A DNA stretch of 64,000 nt, from contig NZ_JAKMCR010000001.1 in NCBI RefSeq assembly GCF_022662175.1, forward strand, positions 1,426,001-1,490,000, read 5' to 3'. Under the pieces are notes generated by a model. It was not told the DNA's origin. It saw only the letters and a list, made by a program, of their open reading frames with translations, and made no database searches. Positions 33,753 through 50,715 of this stretch are shown in pieces; position 1 is the stretch's first letter; each line of letters begins with the position of its first letter. The position numbers were made by a program, and so were the translations under genes. The stretch comes from Aestuariivivens marinum. Its GTDB lineage: Bacteria > Bacteroidota > Bacteroidia > Flavobacteriales > Flavobacteriaceae.

Positions 33753-35054
33753 TTGAAGAGACTATTAGCGTATATAAATAGCAAAGTTTTAGTTAAAATA
33801 ACATCTTTAAAAATGGTTTCGGTTTTTGTAAAGATGTTATCGGGTATTTTAACTTCAAAGGCTATAGCATTGTTTATTGGAGCTGAAGGCCTTGCGCTTA
33901 TTGGTAATTTAAGAAATTTTACCAGCTCAGTTCAATCTGTTTCAACTGTTGGGGTATATAATGGGGCAGTGAAGTACATAGCAGATTTTAGGGAAGATAT
34001 GGTTAAGTTGAGTAAAACGATTTCAACTGTATTTTACTTGGGATTTGTGGTTACGATTTTACTATCTTTCCTTTGCTATTTTTTTGCTGAATCTATTAAC
34101 GACTTAATCTTTCCCGATTATAATAACTATGCCTATGTTATAAGGATCTTTGCGGTTGTGCTTCCTTTTTATGCATTAAACATGTTTTCTTTTTCTATAA
34201 TGAATGGGTTTGCCAAGTATAAAAATTTGATAGTAATAAATATCATTGGTCAAACGCTTGGGTTATCAATAGCTTTAATTTTAATTTATCAAAAACGAAT
34301 AGATGGTGCGTTAATTTCTGTTGCCATAGCCGAAGCCTTAATTTTTTTAATAACGTTGGTAGGAATTATTAACAGAAAGAGTTTATCAAATTTGATTCAG
34401 GTCAAAGAAATTAGCTTTTGGATTATTAAGAAATTAAGCCCTTATTCCATGATGGCTTTGTTTTCAGCAATAATTTTACCCTTGGTTTTAATTGCTATCA
34501 GATCTTACATTATAGAGTATGTAAGCTACAAGGATGCTGGGTTTTGGGAAGCCATGACACGTATTTCTAAGTATTATCTTATGTTTGTTACTGCGCTTAT
34601 GGCATTTTACATATTACCAAGATTTGCTGAAATAGACTCGGTAAAAGAATTTAGAAGGGAAGTGTTTAGTTTTTACAAAGCAGTGGTGCCCATGTTTGCA
34701 TTGGGACTAATTCTTATTTATTTGTTAAGATCTGTTATCGTTACTGTTGTTTTTTCAGAAGAATTTGAACCGGTCGAGGAGTTGTTTTTATGGCAGCTAT
34801 TGGGAGACTTTGTTAAGGTTTTGTCAACCGTTATTGCTTATCAATTTCTTGCTAAGAAGATGTTCTGGCATTACATTGTTACGGAAGCTTTTTTGGTAAT
34901 TATCCTATATGTAACCAGTATTTATTTTATAAAACTATTTGGAGTTGAAGGTGCCGTTATTGGTCATTTGGTAAGCTATACCATGTATTTTGGTGTGATA
35001 TTGCTTATCTTCGGAAGTTCTTTGTTTGGAGTGGATAATCAAAGGGTTGAGTAG
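33753..35054 (+). CDS. Wzx-type polysaccharide flippase (first copy)
   Basis: A 433-residue MOP-superfamily exporter that flips lipid-linked oligosaccharide across the inner membrane. About 12 hydrophobic segments are visible; landmarks are SGILTSKAIALFIGAEGLALIGNLRNF and FLWQLLGDFVKVLSTVIAYQFLAKKMF, as in WzxE-like proteins. The start is TTG. It is supported by the second flippase (40263), whose N-terminus aligns with it (KITSLKMVS against KITSVNAVV); the first ATG (33813) would remove this part. First gene of the glycan cluster. Confidence 0.88.
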   Translation: MKRLLAYINSKVLVKITSLKMVSVFVKMLSGILTSKAIALFIGAEGLALIGNLRNFTSSVQSVSTVGVYNGAVKYIADFREDMVKLSKTISTVFYLGFVVTILLSFLCYFFAESINDLIFPDYNNYAYVIRIFAVVLPFYALNMFSFSIMNGFAKYKNLIVINIIGQTLGLSIALILIYQKRIDGALISVAIAEALIFLITLVGIINRKSLSNLIQVKEISFWIIKKLSPYSMMALFSAIILPLVLIAIRSYIIEYVSYKDAGFWEAMTRISKYYLMFVTALMAFYILPRFAEIDSVKEFRREVFSFYKAVVPMFALGLILIYLLRSVIVTVVFSEEFEPVEELFLWQLLGDFVKVLSTVIAYQFLAKKMFWHYIVTEAFLVIILYVTSIYFIKLFGVEGAVIGHLVSYTMYFGVILLIFGSSLFGVDNQRVE

Positions 35055-35116
35055 TAATGTTTTTACGATTTTATAGAAAAAAGGTTATATTAATGATTAG
35101 TTGAAAATATTAAATT

Positions 35117-35317
35117 ATGTATTTTCTTTATTTTGATCCGGGTTTGGGTGCTATGATTGTTCAAGCTATTGTGGCAGCTGTAGCAGGAGTTTTGTTGTTT
35201 TCAAAAAATTTAGTTTATAAAATGAAGCTGTTTTTTGGTTTGGCTAAAGAGAAAAATGCGCTTAATGACATTGATGTTACAGATAGTGATATAGAAAAAA
35301 AGAGAAAGAGTGAATAA
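35117..35317 (+). CDS. 66-residue DPG-motif membrane protein
   Basis: A tiny protein starting MYFLYFDPGLGAMIVQ, with one membrane helix (IVQAIVAAVAGVLLFSKNLVY) and a charged C-terminal tail. Small proteins with a DPGTGS-like N-terminus are often encoded beside glycan methyltransferases and sulfatase-fold enzymes; their role is not known to me. Its stop overlaps the start of the methyltransferase by 8 bases, so translation is probably coupled. Confidence 0.7.
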   Translation: MYFLYFDPGLGAMIVQAIVAAVAGVLLFSKNLVYKMKLFFGLAKEKNALNDIDVTDSDIEKKRKSE

Positions 35318-36692
35318 TAGAAGTTTTCATTCAGCTTCATTTAGAGACCCGTCTGGTTATGTTTTTGTTGAAAATGGTCTTATAAAACGTTGTGTCAATC
35401 CAATTTACTTCAAACAGTACTTTACCTTTAAGGAACAGGGTTTTTATAATAATTTATTCTCTGCAGGACTTTTAATCAGACACGAGGAAATTACGGTTAC
35501 TGATACAGAAATAATAATTCAACCAGAACAAATTCCTTTTATTACTTATCATTACGAATGGAGTTTTAATCAATATAAGGAAGCAGCACTTTTAACATTA
35601 AAATTACAAAAATACTGTTTAGATCATAATTTTACGCTTAAAGATGCATCTGCATTTAATGTTACTTTTCATAAAGGTAAAGCGGTTTTTATAGATTCAT
35701 TGTCTTTCGATTTTTATCAGGAAAATCAACCTTGGAGAGCTTACAAGCAATTTATAATGCACTTTTTGGGACCTTTGGTTTTGGCAAAATATATTGGAGT
35801 TAAAGCTTTGGGTCTAATGGTGAATTTTATTGATGGTATACCCTTGGATATGTTATCTTCAATGCTGCCATTAAAAACGAAATTTAACCCTTTTTTATAT
35901 TCAAATATTCATTTATTGGCAAAGTTTGAAAGCAAACATAATGAAGATTACAAAGGTAATGTAAAAGAAGCCAAGCTCTCAAAAAAGGCCCAACTAAATA
36001 TCGTAAAAGGTTTATACGATTACATAAACAACTTTCAGATTGAGACAGCTAGTGAGTGGGGGAATTATTATTCTAAAACGAATTACTCTGAATCAAGTTT
36101 TATGCTAAAATCGAAGCTTGTAGATTCATGGATAAATAAGTTAGGGGCGGAAACTTTAGTTGATATAGGTGGCAATGATGGTACTTTTGTTCGTAGAATA
36201 AATAGAAAATTGAAAATGGCACTTGTTTGCGATATAGATAATAATGCGGTTGATTTAAATTTTAAATCGGTAAAAGCTAATCAAGAAAAACACATATTAC
36301 CCTTTGTTATAGATGTGTTAAATCCGTCTGCTTCTATAGGGTTTAATAATACCGAAAGAGCTTCTTTTTTAAAACGAATTAAGGCCTTTGGTCCTGATGC
36401 TACACTTGCTTTGGCCGTAATACATCATTTGACCCTGTCAGGAAATGTTCCTTTTCATGGGTCGGCCGAATTTTTTGCCTCTTTTTCGAAATATTTGATT
36501 ATAGAGTTTCCAAAGCGTGAAGATTCTTGGGTGCAGCGCCTATTAAAAACAAAAGGGGAATTTGAAGATTATTTTGATTTTTATAATATTGATGTTTTTG
36601 AAAAAAGTTATACTATTTATTTCAATATTTTGGAGAAAGAACTTATTGTTGATTCCAATCGCATCATGTATTTACTTAAAAGAAAAGAATGA
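35310..36692 (+). CDS. class I SAM-dependent methyltransferase, NoeA-like
   Basis: A 460-residue protein. The N-terminal half (1-240) is a helical domain of unknown role found in NoeA-type proteins (HSASFRDPSGYVF, TLKDASAFNVTFHKGKAVFIDSLSF). The C-terminal half has a Rossmann methyltransferase with the SAM motif LVDIGGNDGTFVRR (about 285-300), the acidic end of strand 2 (CDIDNNAVDLN), and LALAVIHHL near motif IV. Start codon is GTG overlapping the previous gene; the next gene overlaps by 4 bases (ATGA). Likely modifies a cluster glycan; the acceptor is unknown. Confidence 0.8.
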   Translation: MNNRSFHSASFRDPSGYVFVENGLIKRCVNPIYFKQYFTFKEQGFYNNLFSAGLLIRHEEITVTDTEIIIQPEQIPFITYHYEWSFNQYKEAALLTLKLQKYCLDHNFTLKDASAFNVTFHKGKAVFIDSLSFDFYQENQPWRAYKQFIMHFLGPLVLAKYIGVKALGLMVNFIDGIPLDMLSSMLPLKTKFNPFLYSNIHLLAKFESKHNEDYKGNVKEAKLSKKAQLNIVKGLYDYINNFQIETASEWGNYYSKTNYSESSFMLKSKLVDSWINKLGAETLVDIGGNDGTFVRRINRKLKMALVCDIDNNAVDLNFKSVKANQEKHILPFVIDVLNPSASIGFNNTERASFLKRIKAFGPDATLALAVIHHLTLSGNVPFHGSAEFFASFSKYLIIEFPKREDSWVQRLLKTKGEFEDYFDFYNIDVFEKSYTIYFNILEKELIVDSNRIMYLLKRKE

Positions 36693-38176
36693 TAGGTAAA
36701 ACTAGAAAAAGAATCATTTATTTTTTTGAAAAGGAAAAACTAAACCCTACAATTTCTGCTGTATCAGCTGGACTTTATCCAATATTATATTATTACAATT
36801 CTAATTTTACGTTGGTAAATTCATGGGAGCAATTATTTATGTTTTTATTGACATTTATTTTAATACCAGTGGGAGTATTTAACCTTTTAGCTGGATTTAG
36901 TAAAAGGTATTTGTCTGTAAAACAATATGAATATATTGTTCCAATTTTAAATATCTGCCTTTTTATATTTTTAATCACTTTTAGTATATATGGCCTTAAA
37001 CGAAAAATTTTGCTAATCGCAATTATATTGGCTTTGTTTATTGCGATATTTATAAAGAAACATTTTGAAAAAATAGTAATGCTACAACTAATAATGGCAC
37101 TTATTGTTTTACCAATGTTGCTTCCAGATATAAATAAACAGTTCAATTGCAATAATGAATGGGCAATACAACCGGACTCAATTATTAACGTTGAATTTAA
37201 AAGAAAACCTAATATTTATATTATTCAGCCTGATGGTTACCCAAATTTTTCAGAGTTAGAAAGAGGTTATTATCAATATAACAATAGTGAATTTGAAGTC
37301 TTTTTAAAAGATAAAAAGTTTAAACTATATAACAATTTTAGAAGCAACTATTTTTCGACCTTATCTTCAAATAGCTCCATGTTTTGTATGAAGCATCATT
37401 ATTATAATAATACTAATAGTAGTTATAAAGAATTATATAATGCTAGAGATATTATTGTTGGCGAAAACCCTGTAGTAAAGGTTTTTAAGCAAAATGGCTA
37501 TAAAACCAATTTGTTGTTAGAAAAATCTTATTTATTACTTAACAGACCAGAAATGGGTTACGATTACTGCAATATAGAGTTAGGTGAAGTGTCCTTTTTA
37601 GGAAAGGGTTTTGAAATGAATAAAGATATTTTACGGGATTTTAAAGAAGCTATAATTAATAATAGTCGGCCAAATTTCTTTTTTATAGAAAAACTTCAGC
37701 CAGGTCATATAAGTACATATAAAAGCTATTCGAGTGGGAGAGATATAGAAAGAGTAAATTATCTTAATCAATTAGAAAAAAGTAATAGATGGTTAAAGGA
37801 AATAATTGAAGAAATAGAAGACCAAGATGAAAATGGAATTATAGTTATAATAGCAGACCATGGAGGATTTGTTGGTTTTGATTATACTATGGAGTGTAAA
37901 ATAAAACAAACGGACCGAGATTTAATTTATTCTATTTTCTCAACAGCTTTAGCAATAAAGTGGGGTAAAGAAACGCTTCAAAAGTATGACGATCAATTAA
38001 AAACAAATGTTAATTTATTTAGGGTCTTGTTTGCTTATCTAAGCGAGGATGACAAACTATTACATAATTTACAGTCCGATAAGAGTTTTACGGTTATAGA
38101 AAAAGGAGCGCCATCAGGTATTTATGAATATATAAATGAAAAGGGTGAAGTTGTATTTAACAAAGTTTCAAATTAA
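36689..38176 (+). CDS. membrane sulfatase-fold (alkaline phosphatase superfamily) enzyme
   Basis: A 495-residue protein with four or five N-terminal membrane helices (residues 20-150) and an outer domain of the sulfatase/phosphoglycerol-transferase type. NIYIIQPDGYPN (Asp182) and IVIIADHGGFVGFD are the two metal-binding corners. The expected nucleophile zone NYFSTLSSNSSMF (221-232) has Ser and Thr but no CxPxR, so a sulfatase with formylglycine is excluded. EptA/LtaS-like transfer of a phospho-substituent is possible. Four-base overlap with the methyltransferase gene. Confidence 0.7.
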   Translation: MIGKTRKRIIYFFEKEKLNPTISAVSAGLYPILYYYNSNFTLVNSWEQLFMFLLTFILIPVGVFNLLAGFSKRYLSVKQYEYIVPILNICLFIFLITFSIYGLKRKILLIAIILALFIAIFIKKHFEKIVMLQLIMALIVLPMLLPDINKQFNCNNEWAIQPDSIINVEFKRKPNIYIIQPDGYPNFSELERGYYQYNNSEFEVFLKDKKFKLYNNFRSNYFSTLSSNSSMFCMKHHYYNNTNSSYKELYNARDIIVGENPVVKVFKQNGYKTNLLLEKSYLLLNRPEMGYDYCNIELGEVSFLGKGFEMNKDILRDFKEAIINNSRPNFFFIEKLQPGHISTYKSYSSGRDIERVNYLNQLEKSNRWLKEIIEEIEDQDENGIIVIIADHGGFVGFDYTMECKIKQTDRDLIYSIFSTALAIKWGKETLQKYDDQLKTNVNLFRVLFAYLSEDDKLLHNLQSDKSFTVIEKGAPSGIYEYINEKGEVVFNKVSN

Positions 38177-38200
38177 CTTTATTCATCTATTAAAACCGTA

Positions 38201-39145
38201 GTGATTTTATCAATAAAAAGATATAAACCAGAATATAAGGCACAATGGGACCGTTTTGTTTCAAGTGCTAAGAATGCTACATTTCTTTTTTATAGGGATT
38301 TTATGGAATACCATGCGGATAGGTTTGAAGATTATTCGCTTTTGGTATACAAAAATGAGAAACTAGTAGCTCTAATGCCTGCCAATAAAGTAAGTAATTC
38401 AATTTATTCACATCAAGGTTTAACTTACGGCGGGTTAATATTGGAGAAAAAAACATCATTTCTAAAAATATCGGCCATTTTTGATTCAGTAATTAATTTT
38501 TTAAAACTTAAAGGATTTTCAAAGGTTTTTATAAAACAGATACCAGGATTTTACTGCTCGGAGCCGAGTTATGAATTGGGGTATTATTTGTCGAAAAAAC
38601 ACACTACATTTCATAGTGAAATGGTTTTTGCAATAGATTATAAGCTTCCTTTTAATATACATAAAACAAAATTGAAGCATTTTCGAAAAGCCAAAGTTTT
38701 TGGGTTTGAAATAAAAGAAAATGATGAACTTTCCATTTTCTGGGATAGAATACTCAAAAAAAGACTCCTTGAAAAACATAATACAAAGCCAGTACATACA
38801 TTGTTTGAAATAAATAACTTACAAAATGCTTTTCCCAATAATATTAAACAGTTTAATATCTATTTAGAAGGTGAAATATTGGCAGGTATAACTATTTTTG
38901 AAATGGGAGGTGTTGTCAAATCTCAATACGGCGCAACATCTTTAAAGGGTGAGAAATTTAGAGCATTGGATTATTTGTTTCTACATTTAATTTATAAGTA
39001 TAAAAAAGAAAATAAAGAATACTTTTCTATGGGGACTGTTGTTGAAAACAACGACATGGGTTTTAATGCGGGATTAGTTAAGCAAAAAGAAGAATTAGGA
39101 GCAAGAGTATATTTACAGCATTTTTTTAGTTTGGATTTAGAATGA
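38201..39145 (+). CDS. GNAT/FemAB-like acyltransferase
   Basis: A 314-residue protein with two GNAT-like halves, as in FemAB/BioF2-like acetyltransferases (FLFYRDFMEYHADRFEDYSLLVYKNEKLVALMPAN, then FNIYLEGEILAGITIFEMGGVVKSQYGATS and FRALDYLFLHLIYKY). The start is GTG. Its last 4 bases overlap fdtB. With the FdtA and FdtB homologues it could supply the N-acyl group on a 3-amino-3,6-dideoxyhexose, taking the place of FdtC; that is inference from position. Confidence 0.75.
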   Translation: MILSIKRYKPEYKAQWDRFVSSAKNATFLFYRDFMEYHADRFEDYSLLVYKNEKLVALMPANKVSNSIYSHQGLTYGGLILEKKTSFLKISAIFDSVINFLKLKGFSKVFIKQIPGFYCSEPSYELGYYLSKKHTTFHSEMVFAIDYKLPFNIHKTKLKHFRKAKVFGFEIKENDELSIFWDRILKKRLLEKHNTKPVHTLFEINNLQNAFPNNIKQFNIYLEGEILAGITIFEMGGVVKSQYGATSLKGEKFRALDYLFLHLIYKYKKENKEYFSMGTVVENNDMGFNAGLVKQKEELGARVYLQHFFSLDLE

Positions 39146-40242
39146 TTAAGTTTTTAGATTTACATAAAGTGAACATGAGGTTTCAAAAGGAGTTTATGGA
39201 CTCCTTTCAATCATTTTTAGATTCTGGAAACTATATTTTAGGAGATCAAGTAAACAAATTTGAACAAGATTATGCTATCTACTGTGGGGTAAAATATTGC
39301 ATTGGGGTAAGCAATGGGCTTGACGCTATAAAATTAATTTTAGAGGCCTATAAAGTGCTTGGTAAACTAAAAGAAGGGGATGAAATAATTGTTCCTGCTA
39401 ATACGTACATTGCTACAATTCTAGCGGTAAGTAATACTGGGTTAGTACCAATTCTGGTCGAGCCTAATTTAGAGACTTTTAATGTTAATCCTATCGAAAT
39501 TTTAAAAGTGATAACTCAAAAGACAAAGGCTGTTTTAGGAGTTCATTTATATGGAAGACTATATGATGTTGTGGCATTAGAAGAAATTTCAAAAGATTTT
39601 AACTTATTGTTAATTGAAGATGCGGCTCAAGCTCATGGAGCAATACATAAAGATGGTAGAAAGGCAGGTAATTTATCAAATGCTGCTGCGTTTAGTTTTT
39701 ATCCTACCAAAAATTTAGGAGCTTTAGGTGATGCGGGAGCTATAACAACAAATGATGATGATTTGGCAAACGTTTTACTTCGATTGAGAAATTATGGAAG
39801 GATATCAACTTATGAAAATGATATTAAAGGATATAATTGCAGATTGGATGAAATACAGGCATCTTTCCTAAAAATTAAGCTAAAGCATTTGGATTTAGAT
39901 AATGAAAGGAGGAGGGAAATTGCCAAAATGTATTGTACATCCATAAATAACGAAGCAATAATTTTTCCAACTTATAATGCTTCAAAAAACCATGTTTTTC
40001 ATCAATTTGTAGTTAGGCATAAAGAACGAGATAAGCTAAAAACTTATTTGATTGCTAATAGCGTTGAAACATTAATTCATTACCCAATTCCTCCTCATAA
40101 ACAGCAAGCGTATAGGGAGTTGGGTCATTTATTGTTACCCATAACAGAGAAAATCTATAATGAAGTTTTAAGTTTGCCAATTAGCCCTATGCTTACAGAT
40201 GAAGAGTTGTATGAGATTGTTTATGCTATTAATAATTTTTAA
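39142..40242 (+). CDS. fdtB: DegT/DnrJ-type sugar aminotransferase, FdtB/QdtB-like
   Basis: A 366-residue PLP aminotransferase that puts an amino group on a dTDP-keto-sugar. PLP-binding landmarks are VSNGLDAI (56-63), EDAAQAHGA (Asp160) and the Schiff-base lysine in SFYPTKNLGALGDAGA (Lys190). The substrate-loop sequence RNYGRISTYENDIKGYNCRLDEIQA is standard. Presence of an FdtA-like ketoisomerase 3 kb downstream makes dTDP-3-amino-3,6-dideoxy-galactose or -glucose the likely product. The symbol is by analogy; 3-amino position is inference. Confidence 0.85.
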   Translation: MIKFLDLHKVNMRFQKEFMDSFQSFLDSGNYILGDQVNKFEQDYAIYCGVKYCIGVSNGLDAIKLILEAYKVLGKLKEGDEIIVPANTYIATILAVSNTGLVPILVEPNLETFNVNPIEILKVITQKTKAVLGVHLYGRLYDVVALEEISKDFNLLLIEDAAQAHGAIHKDGRKAGNLSNAAAFSFYPTKNLGALGDAGAITTNDDDLANVLLRLRNYGRISTYENDIKGYNCRLDEIQASFLKIKLKHLDLDNERRREIAKMYCTSINNEAIIFPTYNASKNHVFHQFVVRHKERDKLKTYLIANSVETLIHYPIPPHKQQAYRELGHLLLPITEKIYNEVLSLPISPMLTDEELYEIVYAINNF

Positions 40243-40262
40243 TTATAGATTATTACATTTTG

Positions 40263-41555
40263 ATGCGTATCAAGAATATTATAGTCAATAATCTTCTGTT
40301 TAAAATTACCTCTGTAAATGCAGTTGTAATATCTACACGTTTGGTAATATCGATAATTGTCCAAAGGTTTTTGGCGGTTACTGTAGGAGAGGTTGGGATA
40401 GCTAAAATAGGCCAGATTAGAAATCTTATCCAAATTATTACTAGTACATCTTCCTTAGGAATATTCAATGGAATTGTAAAATACGTTGCTGAGTTCAAAA
40501 ATGATAATGAAGAGATAAGCAAATTATTTTCTACTGCATTTACTTTTGTTTTTATAGGTTCATTGCTTACCAGTTTGTGTTTGTTTTTTTTAGCCCCATG
40601 GTTAAATACCATACTATTTAAAGACCTAGATGTTGTTTGGTTAATTAGGGTTTTGGCTTTATTGCCTATTTTAATTGGTATTAATCGTGTCTTTCATGGA
40701 GTTATCAATGGTCTTTCAGAATATAAGAAATATGCAAAAATAGACTTATTTAGCTATTTGTTATCTGTTGTTGTTCTTTTAGTTAGCTTATATTCTTTTG
40801 ACTTAGAAGGTGTTTTGTTTTCAATTGTTATAACACCTATTATTCAATCTTTGGTTATAGTTTATATATTTGGTTCTGTCCTAAAGCGATTCATACAGAT
40901 TAAAACATTAAGTTTAAAATTGCCATTTGCCAAAGAGTTGTTGGCATTTACACTTATGTCTTTTGTCTCTACTGTTTTGTTAAATTATGTTGAGTTAGAT
41001 ATTAGGACTATGATAACCAATAGAATTGATATTAATGAAGCAGGGTATTGGACAGCCATGAACTTTATATCTAAGAATTACATGGCTTTTTCCTCAGCCA
41101 TTTTTACACTATATGTTATTCCCAAATTTTCGAGGATTTATGATAGAAATGGGTTTTTAAAAGAAGTAATAAATATTTATAAAACGTTACTACCATTATT
41201 CGGTCTTGGAATGTTGTTGATATACATTTTTAGAGATTTTATTATCAATATCATATATCCTAATTTCGTAGGATTGGAGCCGCTGTTTAAATGGCAGTTA
41301 ATGGGAGATTTTATTAGACTTGCCTCTCTAGTGATTGCTCATCAATTTTTAGCCAAGAAATTGGTTAAAAGCTTTATTTTTACGGAGTTGATTTCATTGG
41401 GCTTATTTTTTGTCTTTTCCAAGTATCTAGTAGATCTGTATGGAGCTACAGGGGTTGTGATGGCCCATTTTTATAGGTTCATTGTTTACCTCGTAGTTGT
41501 GATAATGGTAGTTTATGGTTATTTTTATAAACTAAACAAAAATAACAAGCCATAA
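40263..41555 (+). CDS. Wzx-type polysaccharide flippase (second copy)
   Basis: A 430-residue MOP-superfamily exporter, paralogous to the first flippase (shared KITS N-terminus, IRNLIQIITSTSSLGIFNGIVKYVAEF against LRNFTSSVQSVSTVGVYNGAVKYIADF, and FKWQLMGDFIRLASLVIAHQFLAKKLV against FLWQLLGDFVKVLSTVIAYQFLAKKMF). The frame begins with TTG at 40260 directly before ATG 40263; I took the ATG. About 12 membrane segments. Confidence 0.88.
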   Translation: MRIKNIIVNNLLFKITSVNAVVISTRLVISIIVQRFLAVTVGEVGIAKIGQIRNLIQIITSTSSLGIFNGIVKYVAEFKNDNEEISKLFSTAFTFVFIGSLLTSLCLFFLAPWLNTILFKDLDVVWLIRVLALLPILIGINRVFHGVINGLSEYKKYAKIDLFSYLLSVVVLLVSLYSFDLEGVLFSIVITPIIQSLVIVYIFGSVLKRFIQIKTLSLKLPFAKELLAFTLMSFVSTVLLNYVELDIRTMITNRIDINEAGYWTAMNFISKNYMAFSSAIFTLYVIPKFSRIYDRNGFLKEVINIYKTLLPLFGLGMLLIYIFRDFIINIIYPNFVGLEPLFKWQLMGDFIRLASLVIAHQFLAKKLVKSFIFTELISLGLFFVFSKYLVDLYGATGVVMAHFYRFIVYLVVVIMVVYGYFYKLNKNNKP

Positions 41556-41573
41556 ACTCTAAAGCCATTAGTT

Positions 41574-42710
41574 TTATTTCCACTTAGAGATATAGGTTTT
41601 TGCTATATTTATGTAATGGTGTTCTTTTTCAATAAATGCTCTGGCGTTTTTTGATATCTTTCTTATCTCTTTTGGATTTAATATTAACCACTCTAGCTTA
41701 TCAGCTATTTTCTGCTCATTGGGAAGAGCGTTTATAGCTACAGTATCTTCTTCAAGATTAAAATATTCCAACCATTCTTTCTCTGCACCTGTAAAAACCA
41801 CTTTTCCTTTAGCCATGGCTTCTAAGGCGTTATAGCCTTGGTCGTAAGCATAAACCTGATCTAGTAATATATGGCAGCGATTATAAAGTTTTATATACTC
41901 ATTATAAGGAATGTTTTCTATCCTAATAATTTCAACTTTGTCGGCATGGGTTTTTTGGATAAGTTCTAATGCTTTGTCAAAAAAGATATTTCCTTTCTTA
42001 ATATAATTCAATCTGTTGATACCATGAAAAATAACAATTTTAGAAGAATAGTCATTTGTAATATAAGATATTGAATCAGTATTTATAGGATTGGGTATGA
42101 GTCCCAAATATTTAGAATAATTAAGTAAGGGAATGTGATAATCTAAATCTGATGCTATAAGACCTTCTATTTGTTGGTATAGAAATCTATGAAGTTTATA
42201 ATATCGTTTTTTGATGTATTTTAACACATACACAAAGTGTTTCTTTAAATTAGGGTCTTCATGTAATGGTGTTAAAATGGAATATCTAAATTTCTTATCA
42301 AAGGCATATTTAACACTAATATAATCAGTGCCACAGGATAAAAGGAATATTTTTTTGTTTTGGAGGATAAGCTTTTTTAATAACCAAATCTCTAATTTTG
42401 GGTGAGTTCTAATACTGTTTTCATTAATTAATTGTACTATATCAAAGCCTTTAAGTTTTGGCAATATTTTATAAAATCTAAAAGCACATTCATACTGGGC
42501 TAAACTTATTTTAAATAGTTTATAGAAAATTTTTTCAAAAAAGAAGTAAAAAGGTTTTTCAATTAATACAGGTCGTATATTAATGTCAACAGGGAAATTT
42601 TTAAATCCATCACCTGAGCCTACCAACAAAACATCATGTCCATTTTTAATGAGGCCCTCTTTAAGTGAATTATGCAGCCTGCTGTATTCTCCAATTAATA
42701 AAATTTTCAT
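41574..42710 (-). CDS. glycosyltransferase family 4-like protein
   Basis: A 378-residue GT-B-fold glycosyltransferase. The N-terminal Rossmann domain starts MKILLIGEYSRLHNSLKEGLIKNGHDVLLVG. The C-terminal nucleotide-sugar site has YDQGYNALEAMAKGKVVFTGAEKEW, with the spaced Glu residues of GT4. Encoded opposite to its neighbours, convergent with flippase 2 (18-base gap) and divergent from the next GT2. Sugar specificity cannot be read. Confidence 0.85.
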   Translation of the reverse strand: MKILLIGEYSRLHNSLKEGLIKNGHDVLLVGSGDGFKNFPVDINIRPVLIEKPFYFFFEKIFYKLFKISLAQYECAFRFYKILPKLKGFDIVQLINENSIRTHPKLEIWLLKKLILQNKKIFLLSCGTDYISVKYAFDKKFRYSILTPLHEDPNLKKHFVYVLKYIKKRYYKLHRFLYQQIEGLIASDLDYHIPLLNYSKYLGLIPNPINTDSISYITNDYSSKIVIFHGINRLNYIKKGNIFFDKALELIQKTHADKVEIIRIENIPYNEYIKLYNRCHILLDQVYAYDQGYNALEAMAKGKVVFTGAEKEWLEYFNLEEDTVAINALPNEQKIADKLEWLILNPKEIRKISKNARAFIEKEHHYINIAKTYISKWK

Positions 42711-42720
42711 AGAGATTATC

Positions 42721-42739
42721 TATCTTTGTTGTAAAGATA
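42721..42739. promoter_or_regulatory. symmetrical divergent promoter element
   Basis: TATCTTT, five bases, AAAGATA form an inverted repeat in the 36-bp gap between two divergent glycosyltransferase genes. On the plus strand TATCTTTG (42721-42728) matches the -7 element for the gene at 42747; the mirror on the minus strand (TATCTTTA) may serve the GT4 gene. Confidence 0.4.
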
Positions 42740-42746
42740 AATTTTA

Positions 42747-43586
42747 ATGATAAAGGCAGAAAGAAAAGAGAACGATTTTGAAATCTTAATTTCTACCATG
42801 CAAAGAACCAACTTTTCTTTTCTTTCAAAGATGTTTCCCAGTTCCGATTTTTCTTCTTATAATATTTTGATAATCAATCAAACTGAAAAAGGAAAGGAAT
42901 TAATATCAACTTACAAAAATGTAAAGGTTGTTAATGCTTATGAAAAAGGTCTGTCATTAAGTAGAAATTTAGCAATCAAACATGCTACCGGAAGGATTTG
43001 TTTATTTGCGGATGATGATATTAAGTACAAAAATGATTTTAAAGAAATAATAATGGCATCGTTTGATAAAAAAAAGGATGCTGATATTATAACTTTTCAA
43101 ATGGAGGATGATAAAGGACAACTTTTCAAAGCTTATCCTAATATAGAGTGGCATAATCAAAAAACATTACTTACCGTAAATTCAGTTGTTATAGCTTTTA
43201 GGAGATCTCGAGTTCTAAGGTCAGGTATAAGATTTAATATTAATTTTGGTTTAGGAGCAATATTTCCAACTGCTGATGAATACATTTTTTTGAGAGATGC
43301 TTTAAAAGAAAATATTAAAATTTATTTTGAAAGAGCTGTTATTTTAACTCACAACTATTTTAGTTCAGGAAGAGTGATGGGAAGTGATCCTATGGTGTTT
43401 GCACGTAGTGCTTTAATTTATAAGTATTCTGGTAGTTTGACTTATTTAAAGCTAATCAAGTATCTATATCATGCATTTATGGCCCATGAAATAAAATTAA
43501 ATGAATTTGGATCTAAATATATGGTTGGGATAAAAGGAATTTATCATTACAAAGAATTAATAAAAAAAGGAATTGAGAAAAGATAA
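42747..43586 (+). CDS. glycosyltransferase family 2
   Basis: A 279-residue GT-A glycosyltransferase. It lacks the usual VIPxYN opening and starts with FEILISTMQRTNFSF, but has GLSLSRNLAIKHATGRICLFADDDIKY with the DxD-like ADDD metal site near residue 88. The C-terminal portion (YFERAVILTHNYFSSGR) continues to a soluble helix. Fifteen bases before fdtA. Acceptor unknown. Confidence 0.82.
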   Translation: MIKAERKENDFEILISTMQRTNFSFLSKMFPSSDFSSYNILIINQTEKGKELISTYKNVKVVNAYEKGLSLSRNLAIKHATGRICLFADDDIKYKNDFKEIIMASFDKKKDADIITFQMEDDKGQLFKAYPNIEWHNQKTLLTVNSVVIAFRRSRVLRSGIRFNINFGLGAIFPTADEYIFLRDALKENIKIYFERAVILTHNYFSSGRVMGSDPMVFARSALIYKYSGSLTYLKLIKYLYHAFMAHEIKLNEFGSKYMVGIKGIYHYKELIKKGIEKR

Positions 43587-49113: not shown

Positions 49114-50715
49114 TTAGATATTATCATTAATAAATTCTACCTGTTTCCACTCAAAATCAATAGCATCGTTTTTTTGTGGGGTACCAGGTGTACTTCTACC
49201 TTCGGTAATATATTTTGCGAGCAATACTTTTAATTCTTCAGCTTTTTCTTTGTTTGTTACTATTAAATTTTGAGTTTCACTAGGGTCTGATTTTAAATTA
49301 TATAACTGATTTTCAGGTAAGGAATCTATAGCTGCTTTGTCTGAAGGTCTAGGAAAACTCCATCCTCCAGATCCAGGACACATAATAAGCTTCCAATCGC
49401 CTTTTCTTATAGCAAAACTACCGTTAATGGAATGGTGTACTGTAGCTTCCCTAAAAGGGGTTTTAAGGTTTTTATCTTTAAATAGGGATAGCATACTATA
49501 ACTATCCTCGGCTTCATTGTCTTTCAATGTATAACCAGTTAGTTCGGCACAGGTCGCCATAAAATCGGTGGTGCAAATGGTTTCGGTTGATGTAGACCCT
49601 TTATTGATACCTTTTGGCCATTTCATTATAAAAGGTACGCGGTGTCCACCTTCAAAAATATCAGCCTTATGACCTCTGTAAATAGAACTAGGATTATGTC
49701 CCTTTTCTTTTAAAACAACATAATCGGCTTGTGGCGAACAGCCATTGTCACTAGTAAATATAACAAGCGTATTATCCTCAATACCATTTTGCTTTAAGGT
49801 TTCTGTTAGTTGGCCCATAAAGGCGTCGACCATCATAACAAAATCAGCATAAGGATTTACCCCACTTTTATTTTTCCATGCTTCAGTTGGAAGTATAGGG
49901 GTATGTGGTGAAGGTAATGCTAAGTATAGGAAAAAGGGTTGCTTTTCTTCGGATCTTTCAGCAATGTATTTGAAGGATTTCCTAAAAAAGTTAGGGGTCA
50001 CATCATCATGAATAAAGTCTTTTGATGTTGGACCTTTACGCCACCACGAATATTTTCCCGTGTTTTTGGTAACCGAATCTGGAATCATGGTCGCTTTTCC
50101 ATTTTCAACATAAACATAAGGTGCCATATCTAAAGATCCTGAATGGCCATAGGCATAATCGAAGCCCAAATCGTTTGGGCTATTGGTAATAGGTTTGGAA
50201 AAATCGATATTATTAAAATCGACAGGATTCCAGCCCTCTCCAGAGGTATTGTCTTCATCTTTTAAGGCCCAATCCCAACCTAAATGCCATTTTCCAATAA
50301 ATGCAGTATGGTAGCCTTGGGTTTTTAGCATTGAGGCAACTGTACTCCTAGAATTTGGTATTAAGGCTTTAGACTTACCTGTTAAAACACCACTTTTAAG
50401 TCTGCTTCTCCAATTATAGCGTCCCGTTAAAATGCCGTAACGTGTTGGCGTACAAACAGCCGACGAAGTATGGGCATCTATGAATCTCATTCCCTCACTG
50501 GCAATTTTATCGATATTTGAGGTGTTAATTTTACTATCTGGATTGAAACTTGAAATATCGCCATAGCCCAGATCGTCTGCCAATACATAGATAATGTTTG
50601 GCTTTTTTACCTCTTTTTTAATAGGTTTAGAGCAGTTCAAACAAATTAATATAAATAATGAAGACCAAACAATTAGGCTGTATATATGTTTCTTAAAGTT
50701 GGTTATGAATTTCAT
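49114..50715 (-). CDS. S1-family sulfatase lipoprotein
   Basis: A 533-residue sulfatase with N-terminal lipoprotein signal (ICLNC28). The catalytic Cys for formylglycine is in CTPTRYGILTGRY (Cys88-X-P-X-Arg92). Metal-binding ADDLGYGD (Asp47, Asp48) and FTSDNGCSP are intact. It probably removes sulfate from a polysaccharide at the cell surface; formylglycine maturation needs an SUMF/anSME enzyme not present here. Single gene, not adjacent to a SusCD pair. Confidence 0.93.
   Translation of the reverse strand: MKFITNFKKHIYSLIVWSSLFILICLNCSKPIKKEVKKPNIIYVLADDLGYGDISSFNPDSKINTSNIDKIASEGMRFIDAHTSSAVCTPTRYGILTGRYNWRSRLKSGVLTGKSKALIPNSRSTVASMLKTQGYHTAFIGKWHLGWDWALKDEDNTSGEGWNPVDFNNIDFSKPITNSPNDLGFDYAYGHSGSLDMAPYVYVENGKATMIPDSVTKNTGKYSWWRKGPTSKDFIHDDVTPNFFRKSFKYIAERSEEKQPFFLYLALPSPHTPILPTEAWKNKSGVNPYADFVMMVDAFMGQLTETLKQNGIEDNTLVIFTSDNGCSPQADYVVLKEKGHNPSSIYRGHKADIFEGGHRVPFIMKWPKGINKGSTSTETICTTDFMATCAELTGYTLKDNEAEDSYSMLSLFKDKNLKTPFREATVHHSINGSFAIRKGDWKLIMCPGSGGWSFPRPSDKAAIDSLPENQLYNLKSDPSETQNLIVTNKEKAEELKVLLAKYITEGRSTPGTPQKNDAIDFEWKQVEFINDNI

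What the first reader, a model, noticed from the sequence alone, without database searches (positions are those of the whole stretch)
35117..38176. Coupled trio: DPG micro-protein, NoeA-like methyltransferase, membrane sulfatase-fold enzyme
The three genes overlap by 8 and 4 bases, implying fixed stoichiometry. The 66-residue protein has a conserved-looking DPGxG start and one membrane helix. The enzyme at 36689 lacks the sulfatase Cys and has Ser/Thr candidates instead. Together they could be an undescribed system that adds a methylated or phospho-substituent to a lipid-linked or surface glycan, with the micro-protein as membrane anchor or subunit.
Basis: inference. Interest (0 to 1): 0.6.

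Follow-up and report, generated by a model that had tools for sequence, protein, structure and literature searches.

The report
Three-gene glycan-modification module, NoeA/NoeB type
Three neighbouring genes in a marine bacterium (a tiny membrane protein, a predicted kinase-methyltransferase and a membrane phosphotransferase-like enzyme) also sit together in distantly related bacteria, including the nodulation operon of the alfalfa symbiont, where the tiny gene lies unnamed between two known nodulation genes, and they probably put a phosphate-based mark on a cell-surface or secreted sugar chain.

Summary
In detail: three genes (66, 460, 495 aa) at 35117-38176, overlapping by 8 and 4 bases. The linkage is not random. 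In 80 loci found with the small protein, the methyltransferase (MT) gene follows directly in 78 and behind one inserted sulfatase-fold gene in 2. Of 299 family genomes, 43 have both, 3 have one, 253 neither.

The middle protein is a full-length relative of Sinorhizobium NoeA. Besides the methyltransferase it carries a kinase-type residue set (R27, D112, N117, D129), as published for this family (PMC9758233). The third protein has the fold class of EptA/LtaS/PbgA and of NoeB, a conserved Thr/Ser224 and no sulfatase motif. Annotated S. meliloti operons read nodL - unnamed 71-aa DPG protein - noeA - noeB.

So it is partly known: a new member of the NoeA/NoeB kind, biochemistry unproven. Less recognised is the small protein as the MT's near-constant partner; the sulfatase-fold gene is more variable, and a few pairs stand without it. 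Best guess: phosphorylation and methylation of a lipid-linked or secreted glycan, the small protein acting as membrane adaptor. Fixed stoichiometry is not supported.

The parts
35117..35317 (+). DPG microprotein, 66 aa: short N-tail with YFDPGLG (35129-35149), one TM helix (residues 10-28, 35144-35200), basic then acidic C-tail
   Evidence: ORF; conservation; selection and hydropathy; neighbour surveys
35310..36692 (+). NoeA-type kinase-methyltransferase (MT), 460 aa
   Evidence: about 30% identity over 98% to S. meliloti NoeA; alignments A2, A4, A6; model mean pLDDT 88
35310..35939 (+). kinase-like N-terminal region (residues 1 to ~210): R27 (35388-35390), D112 (35643-35645), N117 (35658-35660), D129 (35694-35696) invariant
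   Evidence: same assignment published for the family in PMC9758233; fold not confirmed independently here
36045..36689 (+). class I SAM methyltransferase domain (residues 246-460, DIGGNDGTF motif)
   Evidence: VIA-align Z 15.6-17.0 for the 50 listed rows, all methyltransferases by title, top rows tied
36689..38176 (+). membrane sulfatase-fold (alkaline phosphatase superfamily) protein, 495 aa; six helices in residues 2-153, catalytic-type domain ~160-495; conserved D182 (37232-37234), T224 (37358-37360), H340 (37706-37708), D390-H391 (37856-37861)
   Evidence: PF00884 2.9e-9; model mean pLDDT 91.5; Z 22.0 to YejM, 21.4 to EptC, 19.4 to LtaS; column counts
38201..39145 (+). FemAB/GNAT-like protein that often follows the trio
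   Evidence: weak family matches; synteny
39142..40242 (+). DegT/DnrJ-type sugar aminotransferase
   Evidence: PF01041 6e-99; synteny
33753..35054 (+). WzxE-like flippase upstream of the trio
   Evidence: NF011679 3.6e-61, below the curated cut-off; PF13440
40260..41555 (+). second WzxE-like flippase
   Evidence: NF011679 2.2e-53, below the curated cut-off; PF13440
41574..43586 (.). two glycosyltransferases of the cluster (41574-42710 group 1 on -, 42747-43586 family 2 on +)

Best explanation
The trio is a NoeA/NoeB-type glycan-modification module, here inside a surface-polysaccharide cluster with WzxE-like flippases. Shown: the genes travel together and each family is conserved. Inferred: the cytosolic kinase-methyltransferase phosphorylates a sugar of a lipid-linked glycan and then methylates, most likely the new phosphate, as WbdD does for the O9a O antigen. 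The microprotein sits in the inner membrane with its YxDPG end outside and its basic tail inside; it holds the kinase-methyltransferase at the membrane and, where the third protein is present, couples it to that protein. The third protein is a Thr-nucleophile membrane enzyme of the EptA/LtaS type that transfers or removes a phospho-substituent on the same glycan in the periplasm. In S. meliloti the same genes would act on a secreted glycan such as the Nod factor.
For: Linkage: MT adjacent in 40 of 40 fetched family loci, a sulfatase-fold gene next in 37; MT within 2 kb in 80 of 80 loci of the GTDB scan, many of them the same organisms. In a 395-genome phylum sample 13 of 14 MT-bearing genomes have the microprotein at E<2e-9 and none of the other 381 does (partly circular, see Tried and rejected). 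Distance: the trio in Rhizobiales, Novosphingobium, Singulisphaera and Gemmatirosa, the pair in a deltaproteobacterium. Setting: 34 of 40 loci hold a relative of at least one other gene of the window's glycan cluster. Kinase residue set invariant down to 22% identity. Two micro-less relatives lie directly behind Wzm- and Wzt-like ABC exporter genes, the WbdD setting. The top VIA rows for the MT domain are BCDIN3D and MePCE, phosphate-methylating enzymes (BCDIN3D's activity recalled), tied with others. Position 224 of the third protein is Thr in 32 and Ser in 4 of 36 rows, and Thr in the 13 further proteins aligned, NoeB included. In several distant microproteins a signal peptide ending AHA or AYA directly precedes the Tyr, which puts the DPG end outside.
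Against: No activity is known for any member. The kinase fold was not confirmed here: hhalign against APH kinases gave probability 0.04%, Pfam finds no kinase family, and the fold lists are filled by the methyltransferase domain; WbdD appears in the Foldseek list (ranks 38 and 48) but the aligned length fits its methyltransferase domain. Tied MT-domain rows include enzymes that do not methylate phosphate. The best matches of the third protein (PbgA/YejM) are, from recall, regulators without known transferase activity. No contact between the three is shown. The pair can stand without the third gene: none found in L042, L070, L071 or L111; next to L042 and L070 lie genes such as yaaA-like and folC-like ones, not glycan genes, so a glycan target is not evident there.
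Confidence: 0.38

Rival explanations
1. The microprotein is the substrate or carrier rather than an adaptor: its exposed YxDPGxGS end is what the sulfatase-fold protein, or the kinase-methyltransferase before export, modifies.
For: The most conserved residues (Y5, D7, G9, Q16 invariant in 20 diverse rows) lie at the presumed outer end, away from the cytosolic enzyme; several relatives have a cleavable-looking signal peptide. The pair can lack glycan neighbours.
Against: No Ser/Thr is constant in that end (DPGLG in most Flavobacteriaceae, DAASAS in Novosphingobium); 34 of 40 loci hold other genes of the glycan cluster.
Confidence: 0.14
2. The third protein is a non-catalytic, PbgA-like regulator and the kinase-methyltransferase alone does the chemistry.
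For: Best VIA matches are PbgA/YejM; the sulfatase-fold gene is multiplied or missing in some loci.
Against: Putative metal ligands D182, D390 and H391 are 36 of 36 and position 224 is Thr or Ser in 36 of 36, as expected for an active enzyme.
Confidence: 0.16
3. The methyl group goes on a sugar hydroxyl and the kinase-like part is a pseudokinase scaffold.
For: R replaces the usual Lys and no ion-pair Glu was identified in the family (PMC9758233); E. coli O8 WbdD methylates without phosphorylation (PMC3482155 introduction).
Against: D112, N117 and D129 stay invariant across phyla, which a pseudokinase would not need.
Confidence: 0.2
4. The small ORF is only a translational-coupling leader for the downstream gene.
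For: It overlaps the MT gene in 36 of 40 loci.
Against: Protein-level purifying selection; conserved residues across phyla; it lies downstream of MT in Smac51 and is separated from MT by another gene in L135, L138 and L176.
Confidence: 0.04

Closest known systems
nodL-[71-aa ORF]-noeA-noeB operon of Sinorhizobium meliloti (pSymA)
   Same: Same order of small DPG protein, NoeA and sulfatase-fold NoeB; NoeA about 30% identical over 98%
   Different: Nodulation operon behind NodL; the window trio lies in a flavobacterial surface-glycan cluster with FemAB-like, DegT and WzxE-like genes
Lani_1194 kinase-methyltransferase family (PMC9758233)
   Same: Kinase-like domain plus methyltransferase; Arg in place of the catalytic Lys; neighbours Lani_1193 (65%) and Lani_1195 (38%) of 816 neighbourhoods, the latter predicted as alkaline-phosphatase fold
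   Different: Section 8 of that paper does not describe Lani_1193; whether it is the microprotein was not checked
WbdD of E. coli O9a (PMC3482155)
   Same: Kinase and methyltransferase in one protein; micro-less relatives L186 and L254 share the Wzm/Wzt setting
   Different: Methyltransferase is first in WbdD and last here; nothing follows it here, where WbdD has a coiled coil; the window has WzxE-like flippases beside it
EptA/EptC, LtaS and PbgA/YejM membrane proteins
   Same: N-terminal helices and alkaline-phosphatase-superfamily domain; Thr/Ser conserved at the presumed nucleophile place
   Different: 10-18% sequence identity in the structural alignments; donor and acceptor unknown

Membership tests
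NoeA (Lani_1194-type kinase-methyltransferase) | Full-length homology over both regions | tested here: met
   tblastn about 30% identity over query residues 8-460, E about 2e-46, to NoeA on S. meliloti plasmids; alignment A4
NoeA (Lani_1194-type kinase-methyltransferase) | R, D, N, D kinase residue set | tested here: met
   R27, D112, N117, D129 invariant in A2, A4 and A6
NoeA (Lani_1194-type kinase-methyltransferase) | Kinase fold of the N-terminal region | tested here: inconclusive
   hhalign to APH not significant; VIA list filled by the methyltransferase domain; the published model was seen only as text
NoeA/NoeB module | Sulfatase-fold membrane protein next door | tested here: met
   NoeB itself PF00884 2e-10
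NoeA/NoeB module | Direct sequence homology of the third protein to NoeB | tested here: inconclusive
   hhalign probability 1.4%; D, Thr and DHG blocks align in a multiple alignment
WbdD | Domain order methyltransferase, kinase, coiled coil | tested here: not met
   Methyltransferase domain at residues 246-460, the protein's end; kinase-type residues at 27-129
WbdD | Wzm/Wzt exporter genes beside it | tested here: not met
   Neighbours at 33753-43586 are flippases, FemAB-like, DegT and glycosyltransferase genes; the exporter setting was seen in relatives L186 and L254 (the L254 Wzt_C score is below cut-off)
WbdD | Phosphorylates, then methylates the phosphate of a glycan end | not testable with these tools
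   needs enzymology
EptA/LtaS-type phospho-alcohol transferases | Helical membrane part plus alkaline-phosphatase-superfamily domain | tested here: met
EptA/LtaS-type phospho-alcohol transferases | Thr nucleophile with metal-binding acidic residue and Asp-His | tested here: inconclusive
   T/S224, D182, D390, H391 conserved 36 of 36, but equivalence to EptA/LtaS residues rests on recall and motif order, not on a residue-level superposition
S1 sulfatases | C/S-x-P-x-R formylglycine motif | tested here: not met
   0 of 36 A3 rows, window included

The most novel reading that the evidence does not exclude
The DPG microprotein is an unrecognised, near-obligatory transmembrane subunit of the NoeA-type kinase-methyltransferase that tethers it to the membrane and couples it, where present, to a periplasmic LtaS-like enzyme. 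It defines a membrane-spanning glycan-capping system shared by marine flavobacteria, a planctomycete, a gemmatimonad and the nodulation operon of alfalfa symbionts, while ABC-exporter versions of the kinase-methyltransferase do without it.
Probability: 0.3. Interest if true: 0.75.

Novelty: new member of a known kind. Interest (0 to 1): 0.55.

Why it matters
noeA and noeB have been host-range nodulation genes without known chemistry since 1995 (known to me from citations and later passages). If a so far unnamed 71-aa gene in that operon is a required subunit, the question of what NoeA/NoeB do becomes directly testable: delete the small gene and look for loss of a phosphate or methyl-phosphate on the secreted glycan. 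The same test applies to surface glycans of many marine and soil bacteria. It would also tie WbdD-type capping to clusters with Wzx-type flippases.

Tried and rejected
Tried without result: sequence search of solved structures with the MT, the third protein and A3 gave no credible match. Pfam and NCBIfam gave no credible family for the microproteins tried and no kinase family among the 25 listed for the MT rows. hhalign of the N-terminal region against 15 of 30 fetched APH proteins aligned the two catalytic loops, but at probability 0.04%, so it counts for nothing; the C-terminal control scored 0.14%. VIA-align listed no kinase for the MT model, which is no evidence of absence. A3 against NoeB by hhalign was not significant. 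No MT relative in 50,697 phage records at E<=1e-3.

Rejected: true sulfatase (no motif); leader-peptide reading of the small ORF; random neighbourhoods.

Counts to read with care: A5 holds rows from 11 of the 13 genomes it then finds, so only 2 recoveries and the 381 negatives are independent of its making; the next hit is E 5e-5 inside a longer frame. Relatedness makes the Fisher values meaningless as probabilities. MT-only genomes of the family sample: G257 (micro-less, ABC type) and G293 (gene cut by a contig end, L255). The micro-only genome, G081, is a weak hit (E 0.008) in a 398-aa frame. In G161 both genes sit at the ends of different contigs, so adjacency is untested. Of the 44 microprotein-positive genomes I fetched wide stretches for 40, plus G052 later (L256); G000 is the window, G081 and G161 were not fetched. 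Plasmids: 65 MT records; 62 records match the microprotein by tblastn, compared by genus counts and not record by record; Singulisphaera and Gemmatirosa were found by profile, Novosphingobium by reading the annotation. 'No sulfatase-fold gene' in L042, L070, L071 and L111 means none at tblastn E<=1e-3 with the window protein; a divergent one can be missed, as the A3 profile missed that of L256, which Pfam found. For the micro-less loci 10 neighbour proteins were scanned by Pfam besides and none was a sulfatase, 3 of them matching nothing.

Literature: a search with 'noeA' inside words was swamped by 'apnoea'; 'DPGTGS' or 'DPGSGS' occurs in 4 papers, unrelated by title; the NoeA-family phrases searched occur only in PMC9758233. 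That the microprotein is undescribed rests on these searches of open papers alone; the supplements of PMC9758233 were not readable. Ardourel 1995 is not held.

Full report
Observation. The three ORFs and their overlaps are exactly as stated. They lie in a 3.2 Mb genome of 13 contigs (G000) whose relatives by name are Flavobacteriaceae. Upstream are Kdo-8-phosphate synthase and TypA genes; around them are two WzxE-like flippases, a FemAB/GNAT-like protein, a DegT aminotransferase and two glycosyltransferases.

Is the trio more than chance? The microprotein occurs in 44 of 299 family genomes at E<=0.01 and the MT in 45 of 299; 43 have both, 253 neither. Around 40 of the 44, MT is adjacent in 40 of 40 and a sulfatase-fold gene follows in 37; 22 loci have one such gene, 15 two to four, 3 none found. 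The GTDB contig scan found 153 relatives and kept the best 80: MT is directly downstream in 78 and, in L135 and L138, behind one inserted sulfatase-fold gene; a sulfatase-fold gene lies next in 76, is rearranged in L135 and L138, is cut off by a contig end in L099 and was not found in L111. TypA lies upstream in 77 of 80 and 37 of 40, so part of this linkage is plain vertical synteny.

Against a fixed trio. L042, L070 and L071 have the pair without a sulfatase-fold gene or any relative of the window's glycan genes in the fetched stretch; near L042 and L070 lie yaaA-like, TonB-like and folC-like genes instead (TonB-like is my reading). The core unit is thus microprotein plus MT; the third gene is a frequent companion.

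Beyond the family. In a 395-genome phylum sample 14 genomes have the MT. Around the 13 non-window places I found a small DPG- or DPA-type ORF within 1.7 kb of the MT in 12, ten by profile and two by reading. A profile of diverse microproteins hits 13 genomes at E<=2e-9, all MT-bearing, and none of the 381 MT-less genomes at that level; the next hit is E 5e-5 inside a longer frame (partly circular). On plasmids MT relatives occur in 65 records: Sinorhizobium 57, Rhizobium 3, and one each of Ensifer, Novosphingobium, Singulisphaera, Gemmatirosa and deltaproteobacterium Smac51; the microprotein is there too. In annotated S. meliloti and Ensifer canadensis records the order is nodL, hypothetical protein of 71 aa, noeA, noeB, the small gene overlapping noeA by 23 bases. 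Rhizobium T136 shows the same order, Novosphingobium PP1Y the trio without nodL. In Smac51 the small gene follows the MT.

The microprotein. One TM helix with K/R only after it, so N-out, C-in by the positive-inside rule (recalled). In 20 diverse rows Y5, D7, G9 and Q16 are invariant; three members outside that alignment break G9: L183 and L190 with DPAAGS and Novosphingobium with DAASAS. Several distant members carry a signal peptide ending AHA or AYA directly before the Tyr (read by eye), which puts the motif outside. Median dN/dS is 0.20.

The middle protein. The C-terminal half is a class I methyltransferase. The top VIA rows are BCDIN3D (Z 17.0, rmsd 3.1, 194 aligned) and the methylphosphate capping enzyme (Z 16.9, rmsd 3.2, 194 aligned), tied with NodS and others. 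In the N-terminal half R27, D112, N117 and D129 are invariant in the 30, 21 and 9 rows of three overlapping alignments, and the model's strands and helices run in kinase-like order (my reading). PMC9758233 (section 8 read) describes this for the NoeA/Lani_1194 family: Arg for the catalytic Lys, a methyltransferase domain in 94% of about two thousand kinase-domain homologues, neighbours Lani_1193 and Lani_1195 in 65% and 38% of 816 neighbourhoods, Lani_1195 and NoeB predicted as alkaline-phosphatase folds. My own fold test was inconclusive.

The third protein. Six helices in residues 2-153, then an alkaline-phosphatase-superfamily domain (mean pLDDT 91.5). VIA: YejM Z 22.0 (rmsd 3.5, 282 aligned), EptC 21.4 (4.3, 288), LtaS 19.4 (4.5, 287). 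D182, H340, D390 and H391 are 36 of 36; position 224 is Thr in 32 and Ser in 4. In 13 further proteins, NoeB among them, the residue aligned to 224 is Thr, though H340 does not line up there. None of 36 rows has the sulfatase motif. So it looks more like a phospho-transferase than a sulfatase; activity is inferred.

A telling contrast. Three divergent relatives, L186, L253 and L254, have no microprotein by profile and no sulfatase among the neighbours scanned, and fall on one side of a branch (99/98) from the 48 other rows (long branches, L254 6.3, so its place is unsure). L186 and L254 sit directly behind an ABC2_membrane gene and an ABC ATPase with a Wzt_C match, the latter below cut-off in L254. 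That is the setting in which E. coli WbdD caps O antigen with phosphate and methyl (PMC3482155, abstract and introduction). WbdD's own non-catalytic C-terminus recruits its mannosyltransferase to the membrane (same introduction). This suggests, without showing, that in flippase-type clusters the microprotein does the membrane-tethering job.

Mechanism and status. That microprotein and MT form a real conserved unit I put at about 0.95; that it modifies an exported glycan at about 0.75; the full chain of the best explanation at 0.38. [quoted passage not shown] truncatula genotypes (PMC4053727, passages); NoeA and NoeB are hypothesised to modify the Nod factor (PMC9048898, passage).

Verdict. Partly known: a new member of the NoeA/NoeB kind. 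The newer element is the microprotein as the MT's near-constant partner with a defined motif and topology, which none of my literature searches found described. Lani_1193 may be the same protein; I did not check.

Noticed in passing
L186 7157-9864; L254 4906-7520; L253 6171-7598: Micro-less NoeA relatives; two lie directly behind Wzm/Wzt-like ABC exporter genes as WbdD does, one behind a Wzx-type flippase.
   Followed up: partly
L042 8067-9636; L070 8622-10180; L071 8636-10194: Microprotein/MT pairs with no sulfatase-fold gene found; L042 and L070 have housekeeping-type neighbours, so their target is unclear.
   Followed up: partly
L191 2751-2966: Unnamed 71-aa DPG gene between nodL and noeA in S. 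meliloti plasmids, annotated only as hypothetical protein, overlapping noeA by 23 bases.
   Followed up: partly
L041, L044, L050, L051, L055: Runs of three or four sulfatase-fold genes behind the MT, 36-47% identical to the window's, perhaps for several acceptor positions.
   Followed up: no
L069 9826-10095: Microprotein of 90 aa that looks as if its TM and basic stretch were partly duplicated.
   Followed up: no
window 49114-50715: An ordinary-looking sulfatase (PF00884 4e-50) 11 kb away on the other strand; of 13 PF00884 matches in the genome the trio's is the weakest.
   Followed up: no
L257 5756-8928: Novosphingobium PP1Y plasmid trio with a degenerate motif (YLDAASAS) near a polysaccharide export gene.
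   Followed up: partly
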